NCBI GenBank assembly: GCA_016125275.1
Contig: WGMB01000003.1
Location: 248,001-312,000, forward strand
DNA from: Acidobacteriota bacterium
GTDB taxonomy: Bacteria > Acidobacteriota > Terriglobia > Bryobacterales > UBA6623
DNA length: 64,000 nucleotides
Direction: 5' to 3'
The notes under the pieces are model-generated. The model did no database searches, had not been told where the DNA came from, and saw only the letters and a list, made by a program, of their open reading frames with translations. Below are positions 13,632 to 19,288 of this stretch, piece after piece. Within the stretch, counting starts at the first letter, position 1. Each line of letters begins with the position of its first letter. The position numbers were made by a program, and so were the translations under genes.

Positions 13632-14294
13632 CTAGAAGAACGCCCGAGCGTACATGTACTCGGGGGCGAAGATGCCCTGGAAGGAGATGGTCGTGGGCTT
13701 ATGGACGATCTCCACCACGTAGATCAGCTCGTTCTCCTGCAACCCCGTCGTCGTATTCGTCAGGGCGGAGGGGGCGTTGTCGGCCCAGGCTTCCACCAAA
13801 TCGAAGTGGTTGAGATGGTCGCCTTCCGAGGCCGCGTTGCCGCTCTTATCCACGAACTGCGTTGCGTTCTGGCCGGACTGCAAGCGCGAGCCCATGCCCG
13901 TGGCCGTCGTGTTGCCGATCTTGTAGCGCTGTGCGATCACGATGCGCCCGTTGTTGTTGCAGTCTCGCTGAGAGTAGCCGCTCGAGCACTTGGCGTCGTC
14001 CGGGACGCGGGTCAGCAGCGTGAAGTAGACCGCGCTCTTGCCGCTGGTGAGTTGCAGGTCCAGCCCCGTGGCCGCGTCGATGATGAACTGCTTGTTCTGG
14101 GTGCTCGAAAAGTCCACGCCGCGGGCGTACATGTTGCCGCCGTTGCGCACCACCTGGCCCAGGGTCAAGTGCCGGTCGATGATCATGCCGACGGCGAAGG
14201 TGCCCACCGACATCAACACCAGGAACGGCAGAGCCAACCCGAACTCCACCACCGACTGGGCTCGTTCGTCGCGAAGAAAACGTCGAAAAACCAT
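13632..14294 (-). CDS. TadE/TadG-like pseudopilin
   Basis: 220 residues. The N-terminus has a short basic leader (VFRRFLRDERAQ) followed by SVVEFGLALPFLVLMSVG, the glutamate-containing hydrophobic helix of TadE-like minor pseudopilins. The remainder is an extracytoplasmic domain with a likely disulfide pair (KCSSGYSQRDC). Tad pseudopilins are processed by a prepilin peptidase and help assemble Flp-type adhesive pili. The second gene of a pair; 10 bases separate it from the upstream TadE gene. No other tad genes (ATPase, TadB/C, secretin) are in this window. Confidence 0.8.
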   Translation of the reverse strand: MVFRRFLRDERAQSVVEFGLALPFLVLMSVGTFAVGMIIDRHLTLGQVVRNGGNMYARGVDFSSTQNKQFIIDAATGLDLQLTSGKSAVYFTLLTRVPDDAKCSSGYSQRDCNNNGRIVIAQRYKIGNTTATGMGSRLQSGQNATQFVDKSGNAASEGDHLNHFDLVEAWADNAPSALTNTTTGLQENELIYVVEIVHKPTTISFQGIFAPEYMYARAFF

Positions 14295-14304
14295 GGCTGA
14301 GCTC

Positions 14305-14835
14305 CTACTGGCAGGCGGTGGGATTGGCGACAGTGCCCCGGTTGGGCGGATTGCCGGGGTAGGGCTCCATCTTGTCCGACGCCGAGACGGTCAGGGAGAA
14401 CGGGAACGGCGCCCCCTGGTTGTCCTTCCGAATCAGGTTCGTGATCGGCGTCAGGTCGTAACAGTTGATGCCCACGCGCACGATGCTGCCGGCCTCGGCG
14501 GTGGACAGCGGGCAGGTCGCACCTGCGCAGTTGGCGTCAAAGAACTCCACGGACACGTGAGCGTCCAGCTCAGCCTGGCTGAGCAGCCCGAAGCTGTTGC
14601 TCTGGATCACGGACTTGATGCGCGAGTCCAGGCCGTTCGGCCCCGGCTCCCCCGTGATTGCCGCGCGCACGGCCTCCCGTACGGCGTGGTGAAAGGTCGC
14701 GCGAAGGAACAGCACCCACGTAAACTCAAACATGCCCACGATCATCGTGAGCAAGAGCAGAAACACCAGCGAGAACTCCACCATGGCGTTCCCGCGGTCT
14801 CCGCCGCCCCTCACCCGAGCCCGGATTTGTCTCAT
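14305..14835 (-). CDS. TadE-like pseudopilin
   Basis: 176 residues from ATG 14835, preceded by GGAAGG; an ATG at 14889 is in frame but lies almost at the predicted transcription start. The leader RQIRARVRGGGDRGNA is followed by MVEFSLVFLLLLTMIVGMFEF, the classic TadE helix with its Glu. The exposed part contains NCAGATC and a further Cys pair. It forms an operon with the second TadE-like gene and is divergent from the amidase-actin pair. Predicted role: minor subunit of a Tad/Flp pilus whose main locus is elsewhere. Confidence 0.85.
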   Translation of the reverse strand: MRQIRARVRGGGDRGNAMVEFSLVFLLLLTMIVGMFEFTWVLFLRATFHHAVREAVRAAITGEPGPNGLDSRIKSVIQSNSFGLLSQAELDAHVSVEFFDANCAGATCPLSTAEAGSIVRVGINCYDLTPITNLIRKDNQGAPFPFSLTVSASDKMEPYPGNPPNRGTVANPTACQ

Positions 14836-14895
14836 CGCCTCACCTTCCCGGACGTCCGACGCATTTACCCGTAGAACATCCAGTACCATACGACT

Positions 14896-15099: not shown

Positions 15100-16473
15100 A
15101 TGAACATTCGCGACGAGTCCGGTTCGATCGCCTGGCCGGGACAGGAGTTCCAGCGCACGGTCGCCTCCTTGGCGCGCCGGCTGGAATCCCCTGTGGAGCG
15201 CCTGGCTTTTTCTCGGCGCGCGCTGGCGGAGTATCAAAGGACACCTTCACTGTTGCGAGCCAGCCCGCTGGCGCGTTTTAGCGAAGTCGTGCCAGCGCTC
15301 GAAGCGCTGGCGTCGTGCCGCCGCCACAAGTTGCGTTGGAACGAGCGCGCGCTGCTGCTGGGCTGGCGGCTATGGCGCTTTGTGCCGGCGGCGCCGCTGC
15401 ATCCCCGGCGGGCGGCCTGGGTCGCCGGGGCCCTGCTGGCCGTCAGCGCGGTGGCGCTGGCCCCCAGCTTGAGCCCCCCGGAAGCCGAATCGCCCGCCCC
15501 GGCGCCTGCGGCAGCCAAGCCGGCTCGGCTGCCGGGCGCGGCGGAGTTTCCCCTGGAAGTTTGGCTGGTCGAGACGCAGCAGGAGATGGAGCTCTACAGC
15601 AACGGCCTGCAAGTCAGCAATGAGTTCCTGGTGCACGGCGATCCGCGCAGCTATGTCGTGCTGCCCGCCGGCGCCGGCTCGGACTGGTCCGCGGCGCTCG
15701 AAAAGCCCGACGTGCGCTCCCGGCCGGCCGGCATCGTCTTCCACACCACCGTCAGCGAGGTCAGCCCGCCGCTCGAGCGGGAGCAGAACCAGCTCATCCG
15801 CTACCGGGGGCGCCAACTGTTGCGCTACCTGGCCCGTGAGAAGCTCTATCACTTTGTGATCGACCGCTTCGGACGGGTCTACCGTCTGCTGCCCGAGAGC
15901 GAGGTCGCCTACCACGCGGGGTTCTCGGTGTGGGAACACGCCGGCGAGCAGTACTTCAATCTCAACGACAGCTTTCTGGGCGTCGCCTTCGAGACCCGCC
16001 CTGAAGCCCTCGACTCCGAGACCGGCCCCGAGGCCGCCGTGACGCCCGCCCAAGTCGCCGCCGCCGCTCAACTCACCCGCATGCTGCGCGATACGCTCAG
16101 CATTCCTGAGGGAAATTGCGTCACCCACGAGATGATTTCCCTCAATCCCAACAACCACTTGATCGGTTACCATACCGACTGGGCCGGGCTGTTCCCGTTC
16201 GAACAGATAGGACTCCCGGCGCAGTACGAAACGCCGCTGCCGAGCGTGGCGCACTGGGGATTCCGCTTCGACGACGACTTCGTAGCCGTTCTCGGAGGGC
16301 GGCCCTTCCCGGGAATGACCCGGGCCGAGCGCCGGTTTCGCGAGGAAGCCTACGCCCGCGGCTTGGACGAGGCGGAGCTGAGGCGGCGGCGGGCCGCCGA
16401 GTACCGCCGGATCACGGACGCGCTGGGCCGCTTGCGCCGCGACGTCCGCCCGGACGGCGCGCGCGGCCATTGA
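15100..16473 (+). CDS. Membrane-anchored N-acetylmuramoyl-L-alanine amidase (Amidase_2)
   Basis: 457 residues from ATG 15100. Residues 1-104 are hydrophilic, Arg-rich and lack a signal peptide. One membrane helix follows (about 105-124, AAWVAGALLAVSAVALAPSL) after HPRR, predicting N-in/C-out topology. A Pro/Ala linker leads to an Amidase_2/PGRP domain: GIVFHTT (His215), YHFVIDRFGRVYRL, YHAG (His272), THEMISLNPN (His343) and GYHTDW (His358), giving the zinc ligands and substrate groove. It should cut the amide between MurNAc and the stem peptide in the periplasm. The cytosolic domain of about 100 residues is unusual for this family. A gene for a bacterial actin follows after 56 bases in the same orientation. 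Confidence 0.85.
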   Translation: MNIRDESGSIAWPGQEFQRTVASLARRLESPVERLAFSRRALAEYQRTPSLLRASPLARFSEVVPALEALASCRRHKLRWNERALLLGWRLWRFVPAAPLHPRRAAWVAGALLAVSAVALAPSLSPPEAESPAPAPAAAKPARLPGAAEFPLEVWLVETQQEMELYSNGLQVSNEFLVHGDPRSYVVLPAGAGSDWSAALEKPDVRSRPAGIVFHTTVSEVSPPLEREQNQLIRYRGRQLLRYLAREKLYHFVIDRFGRVYRLLPESEVAYHAGFSVWEHAGEQYFNLNDSFLGVAFETRPEALDSETGPEAAVTPAQVAAAAQLTRMLRDTLSIPEGNCVTHEMISLNPNNHLIGYHTDWAGLFPFEQIGLPAQYETPLPSVAHWGFRFDDDFVAVLGGRPFPGMTRAERRFREEAYARGLDEAELRRRRAAEYRRITDALGRLRRDVRPDGARGH

Positions 16474-16529
16474 GGACAGACAAGGCGCCGCCAGAGCGCC
16501 CGGAGCCAAACAAGAAGAGGGAACAAGGT

Positions 16530-17516
16530 ATGTCGAAAGCAAAAGGTTTGGATCTCGGAACGAGCCGCATCGTCCTGGCCACGCCCAACGACGATGAGAG
16601 CTTCTCGTACTCGGCGCAGCTCAACGCCTTCGTGGCGCTGCCCTACTCCAAGGTCACCGAGCGCGCACTGCAAAAGAAAGGCGTCCCCCACGCCGTGGAG
16701 GGCAAGGAGATCATCGCCTACGGCGACCGCGCCGCCGAGTTCGCCAACCTGCTGCAAGGCGACACCCGCCGCCCCATGCAGACCGGTCTGCTCAACCCGC
16801 AGGAGCCCAAGAGCCTCGAGATGATCGAGCTCGCGCTCAAGCGCATGGTCGGTCCCGCCGACAAGGGCGACAAGATCTGCTTCTCCACGCCGGCCGCCCC
16901 GCCGACCAATGAGAACGACCTGATCTACCACGAGCGCACCGTGCGGCAGATGCTCGAGAAGCTGGGCTACCAAGTCAGGAGCCTCAACGAAGGGCTGGCG
17001 GTGGTCTACGCCGAGCTCGAGGACGACAACTTCACCGGCATCGGCGTCAGCTTCGGCGGCGGCATGTGCAACGTCTGCGTCTCCTACATGGGCATGCCGG
17101 CGATCAGCTTCTCCACCGTGCGGGCCGGCGACTATATCGACCGCAGCGCCTCCTCGGTCAGCGGCGAGACGCCGGCGACGGTGCGACTGCACAAGGAGAC
17201 CGGCTTCGCGCTCAACGGCCTCTCGCCCAACAGCGTGGAGCAGGCCCTGTCGGTCTACTACAACGACGTGATCGAGACCGTGGTCAACGGCCTAGCGACG
17301 GCGCTGGCCAGCCGCGGCAAGCTGCCCAAGCTCGAACGGCCGGCGACGGTCGTGCTGGCCGGCGGCACGGCGCTGGCGGGCAGCTTCCGCAACGAGCTCG
17401 ACAAGGCTCTGCGCAAGCACTCCTACCCCATCGACCTGGGCGAGGTCCGGCTGGCCTCCGATCCGCTCAACACGACGGCAAAAGGCGCCCTGATGGCCGC
17501 CATGCTGGATATGTAG
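16530..17516 (+). CDS. Divergent bacterial actin-like ATPase (MreB/MamK/ParM superfamily)
   Basis: 328 residues from ATG 16530. The actin-fold signatures are in order: phosphate-1 loop GLDLGTSRIVLA (6-17), connect region SLNEGLAVVYAEL (151-163, Glu154 in the place of the catalytic Glu), phosphate-2 loop GVSFGGGMCNVCVS (172-185), adenosine loop VVLAGGTALAGSF (274-286), and the closing helix region TTAKGALMAA. The phosphate-2 loop has Ser174 where MreB-type proteins have the Asp of DIGGGT. It lacks the N-terminal amphipathic helix and overall identity of true MreB and has no Hsp70 C-terminal domain. Probably cotranscribed with the amidase. A filament-forming role in positioning cell-wall hydrolysis is inference. 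Confidence 0.72.
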   Translation: MSKAKGLDLGTSRIVLATPNDDESFSYSAQLNAFVALPYSKVTERALQKKGVPHAVEGKEIIAYGDRAAEFANLLQGDTRRPMQTGLLNPQEPKSLEMIELALKRMVGPADKGDKICFSTPAAPPTNENDLIYHERTVRQMLEKLGYQVRSLNEGLAVVYAELEDDNFTGIGVSFGGGMCNVCVSYMGMPAISFSTVRAGDYIDRSASSVSGETPATVRLHKETGFALNGLSPNSVEQALSVYYNDVIETVVNGLATALASRGKLPKLERPATVVLAGGTALAGSFRNELDKALRKHSYPIDLGEVRLASDPLNTTAKGALMAAMLDM

Positions 17517-17564: not shown

Positions 17565-17951
17565 CTACGGTCCCGATGCCAGGCGCCGGTTGAAGGCGAT
17601 GTCGCCTTCCAGAAACGGCAACTCGGTCAGCCCCTGCGGCGTCTCCCAGCGGGCCTCGGCGAACTGCTGGTAGTCGGGCTGGCCCTGCCAACTCGCCACG
17701 CGCAGAAAGATCAGCAGGATCGGCTTGCGGCCCGGGTAGGCGAACTCGTAGCGCTCCAGCTCGTCGCCGATCGAGGCTTCGATCGAGAGCTCCTCGCGCA
17801 GCTCGCGCCGCAACGCCTCGGCGGGGTTTTCGCCCGCTTCGAGCTTGCCGCCGGGGAACTCCCACAGCCCGGCGTGGTCCTGGTCCGCCCGGCGGCGACA
17901 GGCCAGGATCTTCCCATCCTTTTCGAGAATTCCGGCGACAACGGTGGTCAT
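17565..17951 (-). CDS. MutT-like Nudix hydrolase
   Basis: 128 residues. The Nudix box GGKLEAGENPAEALRRELREEL is complete, including the REUxEE metal-binding glutamates, and is preceded by GLWEFP as in MutT. Such short enzymes hydrolyse 8-oxo-dGTP or other nucleoside diphosphate derivatives, keeping oxidised guanine out of DNA. The N-terminus VVAGILEKDGKILACRRR matches MutT well, so an 8-oxo-dGTP diphosphatase role is likely but specificity is not proven. Starts 17 bases from the divergent DegT-like gene. Confidence 0.88.
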   Translation of the reverse strand: MTTVVAGILEKDGKILACRRRADQDHAGLWEFPGGKLEAGENPAEALRRELREELSIEASIGDELERYEFAYPGRKPILLIFLRVASWQGQPDYQQFAEARWETPQGLTELPFLEGDIAFNRRLASGP

Positions 17952-17968
17952 GAACCCGCGATGCTATC

Positions 17969-19288
17969 ATGCTCGCCATGTGGAGCCGTCGCCTCTTCGT
18001 GGGAGCCGCAGCCGCTTTGGCCGCCGGTCCCGTCCACGCCGCCAAGACCGGATCGGACAAGCCGGCCGTGCTGGGCGGCAAGCCCGTCCGCACCGAGTCG
18101 TTCCCGTCTTGGCCGCTGGTCGAGAAGAACGACGAGAAGCTGCTGCTGGAGACCCTGCGCTCGCGGCTGTGGAACCGCCGCAACGGGCGGAACACCGAAA
18201 GCTTCGAGAAGGCCTGGGCGACCAAGATCGGCGCCGGCCACGCCGTGGCGACCAACGGCGGCACCACCGCGCTCTACGCCGGGCTCGCGGCGCTCGACAT
18301 CGGCCCCAAGGACGAGGTGATCGTCCCGCCCTACACCTTCATCGCCACCGTCAACGCCGTGCTGCAGCATCACGCGCTGCCGGTGTTCGTGGATACGGAC
18401 TTCCAGACGCACCAGATCGATCCGTCGAAGATCGAGGCGGCCATCACCAAGAACACGCGGGTGATTCTGCCGGTGCACATCGCCGGATCGGCCGCGGACA
18501 TGGACGCCATTCTGGCCATCGGCAAGAAGCACGGCATCCCGGTGCTCGAGGACGCCTGCCAGGCGCACCTGGGCGAGTGGCGCGGCCGCAAGCTCGGCAC
18601 GCTCGGCGCCGCCGGCTGCTTCAGCTTCCAAGCCTCCAAGAACCTCAACTGCGGCGAGGGCGGCTGCCTGGTCACCAACGACCGCGACTTGGCCGTGCGC
18701 GCCTCGGCCTTCCAGAACAACGGCAACCCGCTGCACGGCGACGGCAAGAACCGCGGCTACGGCTCCAACCTGCGGATGACCGAGTTCCAGGCCTCTGTGC
18801 TCCATGCGCAAATGGAGCGGCTGGACGAGCAAGCCGCGCGGCGCTCCGCCAACGCGGCCTATCTGGACGGCCTGCTGGCGGACGTGGCCGGCGTCACGCC
18901 CGCCCGGCGCTACGAGGGCTGCACCCGCAGCGCCTACCACCTCTATATGCTGCGCTACGAGCCCGAGGCGTTCGGCGGCATGTCCAAGGCCCGCTTCATG
19001 GAAGCCGTCAAGGCCGAGGGAATCCCGCTCTCGGGCGGCTATCACCCGCTCAACCACGACGACTTCCTCGAAAAGGCCTTCCAGACCCGGGCGTTTCGCG
19101 CCGTCTACTCGAGCGGCGAGATGGCAAAGTGGCGCGAGCGCAACGTGACCCCCGTCAACGACCGGCTGTGCGGCGAGGCCTTCTGGTTCGGCCAGACCAC
19201 TCTGCTGGGCGAGCGCTCGGACATGGAGCAGATCGCGGAAGCCTTCCACAAGATCCACCGCTTCGCCGGAGAGATCGGCCGCGGCTGA
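17969..19288 (+). CDS. DegT/DnrJ/EryC1/StrS-family PLP protein with Tat signal
   Basis: 439 residues; ATG at 17969 (a second in-frame ATG at 17978). The N-terminus SRRLFVGAAAALAAGPVHA fits a twin-arginine signal with a cleavage site after VHA. The body is a sugar-aminotransferase fold: NGGTTALYAGL, PPYTFIATVNAVL, VLEDACQAHLGE, and the PLP lysine in FSFQASKNLNCGEGG. Cytosolic members transfer amino groups to keto-sugars. Tat export would allow the cofactor-loaded protein to reach the periplasm, which is odd for an enzyme needing glutamate as donor. TATCAT at 17964 may be its -10. Divergent from the Nudix gene and in front of the moxR-bat operon, but separated by 77 bases. Confidence 0.85.
   Translation: MLAMWSRRLFVGAAAALAAGPVHAAKTGSDKPAVLGGKPVRTESFPSWPLVEKNDEKLLLETLRSRLWNRRNGRNTESFEKAWATKIGAGHAVATNGGTTALYAGLAALDIGPKDEVIVPPYTFIATVNAVLQHHALPVFVDTDFQTHQIDPSKIEAAITKNTRVILPVHIAGSAADMDAILAIGKKHGIPVLEDACQAHLGEWRGRKLGTLGAAGCFSFQASKNLNCGEGGCLVTNDRDLAVRASAFQNNGNPLHGDGKNRGYGSNLRMTEFQASVLHAQMERLDEQAARRSANAAYLDGLLADVAGVTPARRYEGCTRSAYHLYMLRYEPEAFGGMSKARFMEAVKAEGIPLSGGYHPLNHDDFLEKAFQTRAFRAVYSSGEMAKWRERNVTPVNDRLCGEAFWFGQTTLLGERSDMEQIAEAFHKIHRFAGEIGRG

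What the first reader, a model, noticed from the sequence alone, without database searches (positions are those of the whole stretch)
15100..17516. Peptidoglycan amidase with a cytosolic domain beside a divergent bacterial actin
The amidase has about 104 cytosolic residues, one membrane helix and a periplasmic Amidase_2 domain. 56 bases later, same strand, lies an actin-like gene. Seen: topology signals and actin motifs. Inference: the cytosolic domain docks on the actin filament, so an internal cytoskeleton could steer wall cutting directly without an intermediate membrane adaptor such as RodZ or MreC. I know no described system of this exact form.
Basis: partly seen in the sequence, partly recalled or inferred. 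Interest (0 to 1): 0.62.

Follow-up and report, generated by a model that had tools for sequence, protein, structure and literature searches.

The report
Bacterial actin paired with wall-cutting amidase
Many Acidobacteriota carry, side by side, a gene for an actin of a family first described in salt-loving archaea and a gene for a membrane-anchored enzyme that cuts the cell wall and shows a short conserved tag to the cell interior, which suggests that an internal filament may hold or steer the wall cutter directly.

Summary
Window 15100-16473 (+) encodes a 457-aa protein with a cytosolic N-terminus, one membrane helix and a periplasmic Amidase_2 domain; 56 bases later, 16530-17516 encodes an actin. 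The actin belongs to the Volactin family (Pfam PF25216, 237 bits, cut-off 35), described in haloarchaea; the genome has a separate MreB. The pair is conserved: the amidase lies directly upstream in 12 of 17 volactin-bearing genomes of a 297-genome Acidobacteriota sample and beside it in 62 of 65 Acidobacteriota loci among the 80 best relatives. Of 14 sampled genomes with the amidase, 13 have volactin; near kin of some carriers have neither. The '104-residue cytosolic domain' holds one conserved motif of about 20 residues (family consensus E-W/R-R-A-x-x-I-x-D-P-V-x-R-L-R-F/Y-L-R, predicted helix-Pro-helix); the window's copy keeps 10 of 19 majority residues. Best explanation: volactin filaments position or regulate the amidase through this motif. 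Nearest precedent: bactofilin BacA with M23 peptidase LmdC. Co-conservation is shown; docking is inferred. Thirteen alphaproteobacterial genomes with the closest volactins lack the amidase, so volactin also works without it. A read-through single-chain model gave no support for docking and is inconclusive.

The parts
15100..16473 (+). Membrane-anchored N-acetylmuramoyl-L-alanine amidase, 457 aa: cytosolic tail, one membrane helix, periplasmic Amidase_2 domain
   Evidence: Pfam PF01510 E 7.7e-16; AlphaFold pLDDT above 90 over most of the amidase domain; AmpD 2y2b Z 15.4 over 160 residues, rmsd 2.7
15160..15228 (+). Conserved cytosolic motif (residues 21-43, around S30-P31), predicted helix-Pro-helix; proposed docking element
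   Evidence: 69 distinct sequences; columns -5, -2, +2 and +9, which the search pattern did not fix, reach 3.2-3.8 bits; most flanking columns under about 1 bit; the window keeps 10 of 19 majority residues (-9 to +9); helices 15-25 and 31-47 at pLDDT 83-90
15412..15480 (+). Predicted membrane helix (hydrophobic segment residues 105-127; helix 102-119 in the model)
15718..16134 (+). Amidase_2 domain (residues 207-345); H215 and H343 (and, just after it, H358 and D360) invariant and E298 at least 90% conserved in 54 relatives
   Evidence: their assignment as zinc ligands/catalytic residues is by recalled comparison with AmpD/AmiD
16474..16529 (+). 56-base gap between the two genes (a 1- or 4-base overlap in 29 of 63 relatives, start codons chosen by rule)
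16530..17516 (+). Volactin-family actin, 328 aa; nucleotide-binding GLDLGT at residues 6-11
   Evidence: the fold of relative L085 is closest to MamK, BeeR and MreB

Best explanation
The two genes form one functional module. The volactin-family actin polymerises in the cytosol. The amidase sits in the inner membrane with its catalytic domain in the periplasm, and its short cytosolic motif binds the actin filament or its membrane-touching tip. The filament thereby places, clusters or licenses an enzyme that cuts the bond between MurNAc and L-Ala, so wall opening (most likely septum splitting or local remodelling) follows an internal actin that is not of the MreB family. Shown: both genes, their families, conserved linkage, co-occurrence, the conserved motif and active-site residues. 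Inferred: polymerisation in bacteria, motif-filament binding, catalytic activity, site of action.
For: Linkage in 12 of 17 phylum-sample loci and in 62 of 65 Acidobacteriota loci plus one Desulfobacteraceae locus (L127, amidase downstream) among the 80 best relatives. Co-occurrence in 297 genomes: both 13, volactin only 4, amidase only 1, neither 279; Fisher p 1.9e-18, not corrected for kinship. Joint presence or absence at short range: two genomes of one genus of the window's order, one with both and one with neither; in the order of G258, 1 of 15 genomes has volactin and the same 1 of 15 has the amidase. Where the genes are unlinked, both stay: G267; the three Acidobacteriota genomes whose volactin locus lacks the amidase have it elsewhere, one of them beside another volactin, in the order actin-amidase. 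Gene distances agree: Mantel r 0.86 over 68 pairs, largest of 999 permutations 0.21, which shows joint inheritance. Motif; in the window's genome its profile matches the amidase at E 9e-9 and nothing else below 0.08 (the window's own row is in that profile). 1- or 4-base overlaps in 29 of 63 pairs suggest translational coupling.
Against: Thirteen alphaproteobacterial genomes with the window's closest volactins (up to 59% identity) have no tailed amidase: 0 of 13, and their 14 loci have none nearby (L060 has only 328 bases upstream). Four Acidobacteriota genomes with divergent volactins lack it too (two of them only 65% and 72% complete). So volactin has a use without it. One genome (G148, 87% complete) has the amidase without a volactin above cut-off. 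The window's own motif departs from the family majority at 9 of 19 positions. A single-chain read-through model of amidase plus actin from L085 had pTM 0.54 and motif pLDDT 76-80, no higher than in the window's amidase alone (83-90), so it gives no sign of docking. A scan for volactin positions kept with the amidase gave 5 candidates among 22, the rest following kinship or unclear.
Confidence: 0.57

Rival explanations
1. The pair acts in one process, but the motif does not bind volactin. It is a dimerisation or membrane-proximal element, or it binds another cytosolic partner such as MreB or a divisome protein; volactin acts on the amidase only indirectly.
For: The motif's I-x-D-P-V-x-R-L spacing equals that of the first HAMP helix (HAMP consensus recalled): the best non-amidase match to the motif profile in 19 genomes is a chemoreceptor-like protein, at a stretch that reads as HAMP-like (L149, E 7.8e-4). 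In 5 of 12 paired loci of the phylum sample a SPOR-domain membrane protein lies directly upstream, so division proteins may be partners.
Against: The window's amidase shows no Pfam HAMP match at E up to 1. In 297 genomes this amidase follows volactin (13 of 14), whereas MreB is far more widespread (general knowledge; PF06723 rings in 12 of 14 control genomes).
Confidence: 0.22
2. Volactin's job is DNA partitioning or a general shape role, and the amidase is merely co-transcribed for a different task.
For: Salactin helps DNA partitioning (discussed in PMC10869688, passages). Alphaproteobacteria keep volactin without the amidase. In L127 a gene whose translation reads like a ParA-type ATPase lies upstream, on the other strand (no profile search run).
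Against: Linkage and joint loss across many families, retention when unlinked, and a conserved cytosolic motif that a purely periplasmic enzyme would not need.
Confidence: 0.12
3. The N-terminal part is an unusually long signal peptide: the amidase is exported and released, and the motif serves export only.
For: In many relatives the hydrophobic stretch is short: 24 of 54 have under 18 residues free of charged residues, Asn, Gln and His.
Against: The window and several families have 20-25 such residues, followed in some by positive charges; inner flank more positive in 43 of 54. A signal peptide would not need a conserved 20-residue motif or linkage to an actin. No signal-peptide predictor was available.
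Confidence: 0.07

Closest known systems
Bactofilin BacA with M23 peptidase LmdC (Hyphomonas neptunium, Rhodospirillum rubrum; PMC10945521, passages read)
   Same: Cytoskeletal polymer gene next to a gene for a single-pass membrane wall hydrolase; short cytosolic N-terminal region; conserved adjacency; there the tail (residues 1-38) binds the polymer with an apparent KD of about 15 uM, and in R. rubrum the polymer recruits the enzyme
   Different: Polymer is a bactofilin, not an actin; enzyme is a DD-endopeptidase, not an amidase; the tail motif is a beta-hairpin, here a predicted helix-Pro-helix; binding is shown there and inferred here
Volactin of Haloferax volcanii (PMC10869688, passages read)
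   Same: Same Pfam family PF25216; an actin with a role in cell shape there and a proposed one here
   Different: Haloarchaea have no peptidoglycan (general knowledge); there dynamic filaments touch the membrane with their tips; no amidase partner is mentioned in the passages read
MreB with RodZ and MreC (recalled)
   Same: Actin in the cytosol linked to wall enzymes across the membrane
   Different: Acts through adaptors on wall synthesis; different actin family; this genome has its own MreB
MamK and BeeR
   Same: Closest solved folds of relative L085's actin, Z 28.9 and 28.5
   Different: Only weak sequence match to MamK: NCBIfam model 33 bits against a cut-off of 400; MamK organises magnetosomes; BeeR's function is unknown (PMC11929497, passages)
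AmpD / AmiD amidases
   Same: Amidase_2 fold, Z 15.4 / 14.0; conserved putative zinc and catalytic residues
   Different: No membrane helix or cytosolic motif in those enzymes (recalled); AmpD equivalog cut-off not reached (21 of 143 bits)

Membership tests
Volactin (PF25216) | Match above the curated cut-off over the whole length | tested here: met
   237.2 bits against 35, residues 4-324, profile 2-321 of 321; all 16 members of A1 match. Of 14 control genomes 1 is over the cut-off; Haloferax volcanii is among those that ring, but the calls do not say which one is over
Volactin (PF25216) | Forms dynamic filaments in the cell | not testable with these tools
   Known to me for H. volcanii only (passages)
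MreB (PF06723) | Match to MreB_Mbl above cut-off | tested here: not met
   Window actin not among matches at E 0.001 in its own genome; MreB lies on another contig, E 1.6e-146. Five of 16 family members match MreB_Mbl weakly, best 2.5e-6
MamK (NF040964) | Curated cut-off of 400 bits | tested here: not met
   33.2 bits
Amidase_2 (PF01510) | Match above cut-off and conserved putative metal and catalytic residues | tested here: met
   59.1 bits against 26; H215, H343, H358 and D360 invariant, E298 at least 90% in 54 sequences
AmpD (NF008758) | Curated equivalog cut-off | tested here: not met
   21.4 bits against 143
BacA-LmdC module | Bactofilin next to an M23 peptidase | tested here: not met
   Here a volactin and an Amidase_2 enzyme
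BacA-LmdC module | Cytosolic tail of the hydrolase binds the polymer | not testable with these tools
   Only a conserved tail motif is shown; proxy model inconclusive

The most novel reading that the evidence does not exclude
Dynamic volactin filaments grip a wall-cutting amidase directly through a short cytosolic helix-Pro-helix motif, giving Acidobacteriota an actin-guided wall-opening system independent of MreB, FtsA and any membrane adaptor, and showing that a family described in archaea without peptidoglycan acts on the wall in bacteria.
Probability: 0.42. Interest if true: 0.8.

Novelty: new variant of a known kind. Interest (0 to 1): 0.63.

Why it matters
How a cell decides where to cut its own wall is an open question, and most known links run through adaptors or through wall synthesis (general knowledge). 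A conserved actin-amidase pair with a single short candidate docking motif makes a direct link testable with one peptide and one filament. It also gives a starting point for the function of bacterial volactins: 448 stretches in species genomes were confirmed as relatives of the actin alignment, of which I read the best 80. The seven papers found that use the word volactin are, by title, on Haloferax, archaeal tissues, actin evolution or cell mechanics; I read passages of one.

Tried and rejected
Complex prediction: only single chains can be folded and no coordinates are returned. I folded a read-through chain (amidase and actin that lie in one frame with a single stop between them, read as a residue, headed by L085) on a 63-row alignment: 6 such read-through rows plus unpaired amidase and actin rows. 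pTM 0.54 and no rise in motif confidence: inconclusive, not counted for docking. It is not the window's own pair, whose genes are in different frames.

Volactin positions that track the amidase: 22 candidates; in 18 the window's residue also occurs in the alphaproteobacteria, and in 5 the window keeps the amidase-type residue (the two groups overlap). No control; not used.

HAMP: the motif has the spacing of the first HAMP helix, but no Pfam HAMP match; treated as resemblance.

A shared docking motif in other proteins: the motif profile finds only the amidase in the window's genome below E 0.08, but it is not sensitive. At E up to 1 it recovered the amidase in 9 of 13 genomes that have both genes.

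Alphaproteobacterial partner: 6 of 14 loci have a small cytosolic protein upstream of volactin (L050-L053, L056, L057); the two tried (L051, L057) have no Pfam match. Not resolved.

L046 counts as 'no' in the tree although its genome has the amidase elsewhere. The motif pattern fixed positions +1, +4, +5, +7 and +8, so those columns are inflated; 59 of 63 amidase ORFs matched it (not L078, L116, L121, L123). The 80 named loci are the best of 448 by similarity to the window's actin, not a random sample, and L050 and L051 come from one genome. A2, used, was built from 12 of the 14 genomes it then found, so it tests specificity rather than sensitivity. In one search only 1500 bases on each side were held, so a volactin further off would be missed.

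Full report
What is there. The amidase gene runs 15100-16473 (+) and codes for 457 residues. Pfam finds Amidase_2 at residues 207-345 (E 7.7e-16). A single hydrophobic segment, residues 105-127, has net +4 on the N-terminal flank and -1 on the other, so the N-terminus should face the cytosol and the enzyme the periplasm. The AlphaFold model (54-row alignment, mean pLDDT 83.9) has a confident amidase domain whose nearest solved structures are AmpD (Z 15.4, 160 residues, rmsd 2.7) and AmiD (Z 14.0, 150 residues, rmsd 3.2). H215, H343, H358 and D360 are invariant and E298 at least 90% conserved in 54 relatives; by recalled comparison with AmpD and AmiD these are the zinc ligands and catalytic residues, so the enzyme is probably active.

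The actin gene runs 16530-17516 (+), 56 bases later. It matches the Volactin family at 237 bits (cut-off 35), far above Salactin (19 bits, below cut-off) and the MamK model (33 bits against a cut-off of 400). MreB is a different gene on another contig (E 1.6e-146), and the window's genome has one volactin match. The fold, predicted for relative L085's actin, is closest to MamK (Z 28.9), BeeR (28.5) and MreB (26.9).

The organism. One genome of the window's phylum (G258) has a 15783-base contig with an amidase start identical to that of a 15783-base record titled Acidobacteria bacterium nzgw75 (L042 and L068), so the window is from Acidobacteriota. Order and genus are not named by the tools.

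Conservation of the pair. In a sample of 297 Acidobacteriota genomes, 17 have a volactin above cut-off (14 more have weaker matches, of which those shown are partial) and 14 have the tailed amidase at E 1e-20 or better. Thirteen have both; 4 have volactin alone, 1 the amidase alone, 279 neither (Fisher p 1.9e-18, kinship ignored). The amidase is directly upstream on the same strand in 12 of the 17; in G267 it is on another contig. Among the 80 best relatives in named genomes, 61 have it within 1200 bases upstream, one more (L123) is cut by the contig end and one (L127, a Desulfobacteraceae MAG) has it downstream. The 17 without are 14 alphaproteobacterial loci and 3 Acidobacteriota loci. The genomes of those 3 all have a full-length orthologue elsewhere, while 13 alphaproteobacterial genomes have none: 12 show only partial Amidase_2 matches (E 9e-11 or weaker) and 1 shows nothing. 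Beyond the pair, no gene cluster recurs in more than 10 of 62 paired loci. Overlaps of 1 or 4 bases occur in 29 of 63 pairs, with start codons chosen by rule.

Gain and loss. In one order of the phylum, 1 of 15 genomes has volactin and the same one has the amidase; in one genus of the window's order, one genome has both and one neither. On a tree of 95 volactins the label 'has the amidase nearby' needs 5 changes against a mean of 20 on shuffles. The window's actin is sister to the 14 alphaproteobacterial ones (support 100/100) although the window keeps the amidase, so the pairing probably predates that branch and was lost in the alphaproteobacteria; the deepest rows have long branches and their places are unsure. 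The other volactin genome of the window's order (G187) falls elsewhere on the tree, which points to horizontal transfer. Actin and amidase distances correlate (Mantel r 0.86 over 68 pairs), as expected for genes inherited together.

The cytosolic part. In 54 relatives the part before the membrane ranges from 40 to 134 residues, and only one stretch is well conserved: hydrophobic-E-(W/R)-R-A-x-x-I-x-D-P-V-x-R-L-(R/K)-(F/Y)-L-R. In 69 distinct sequences, positions not fixed by my search pattern are still strong: A at -5 in 63, I at -2 in 56, V at +2 in 54, R at +9 in 55. In the window it is residues 21-43; the window keeps 10 of the 19 majority residues from -9 to +9. It is modelled as two helices (15-25 and 31-47) at pLDDT 83-90, separated from the membrane helix by a less certain stretch. 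A short conserved motif in a variable tail is what a docking element looks like; it could also serve dimerisation (its spacing matches the first HAMP helix).

Mechanism. Volactin in Haloferax volcanii forms dynamic filaments that touch the membrane with their tips and bridge the cytoplasm (PMC10869688, passages). I propose that in these bacteria the amidase tail is a membrane contact of the filament, so that the filament holds or concentrates the amidase at its site. In 5 of 12 paired loci of the phylum sample a SPOR-domain membrane protein lies directly upstream (two families only). SPOR domains bind peptide-free glycan strands made by amidases at the septum (recalled), which favours a role in cell separation in at least those lineages. 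The step from motif to filament is inferred. The one structural proxy I could run, a read-through chain of L085 amidase and actin, gave no support (pTM 0.54, motif pLDDT 76-80), and no coordinates are returned to inspect.

Against what is known. The design is not new in kind: bactofilin BacA and the M23 peptidase LmdC are encoded side by side, LmdC's cytosolic N-terminal region binds BacA (apparent KD about 15 uM), and in R. rubrum recruitment of the enzyme depends on that region (PMC10945521, passages). The new points are an actin instead of a bactofilin, an amidase instead of an endopeptidase, a helical motif instead of a beta-hairpin, and a possible bacterial function for a family described in archaea. 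My paper searches returned 7, 4, 1, 33 (15 listed), 6, 0, 926 (8 listed) and 23 (10 listed) papers; no listing describes this pair. I saw titles and abstract starts, and passages of three papers (PMC10869688, PMC10945521, PMC11929497); the library holds open-licence papers only.

Verdict. A real, conserved, probably functional actin-amidase pair; physical docking untested. New variant of a known kind. On checking, the main confidence was lowered by 0.01 for the window's weak fit to the motif majority, and the signal-peptide rival raised by 0.01.

Noticed in passing
L050-L053, L056, L057 (upstream of volactin): Six of 14 alphaproteobacterial volactin loci have a small cytosolic protein upstream (N-terminus like E/D-P-T/S-V-x-E-I-V-x-A-L-R-E/D, then a coiled-coil-like part); no Pfam match for the two tried, L051 and L057. 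A possible alternative volactin partner.
   Followed up: partly
L037, L039, L041, L047, L048: A membrane protein with an N-terminal cysteine-rich (zinc-ribbon-like, by reading) part and a C-terminal SPOR domain precedes the amidase in 5 of 12 paired loci of the phylum sample.
   Followed up: partly
L120 and L129: Two Acidobacteriota volactin copies without a neighbouring amidase have another cytosolic gene upstream (Pfam: none for L129); their genomes hold the amidase elsewhere.
   Followed up: partly
window 13632-14889: Two TadE-like pilus-assembly proteins on the opposite strand just upstream of the amidase; not part of the conserved pair.
   Followed up: no
window 17565-17951 and 17969-19285: A NUDIX hydrolase (- strand) and a DegT/DnrJ aminotransferase follow the actin; from reading the translations only, a MoxR-type ATPase and von Willebrand-type protein cluster starts after them.
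   Followed up: no
L034 and L035 (G290, G266): The volactins that match the family model best in the sample (313 bits) are followed by an uncharacterised gene that to my reading resembles a gas-vesicle GvpO protein; not tested.
   Followed up: no
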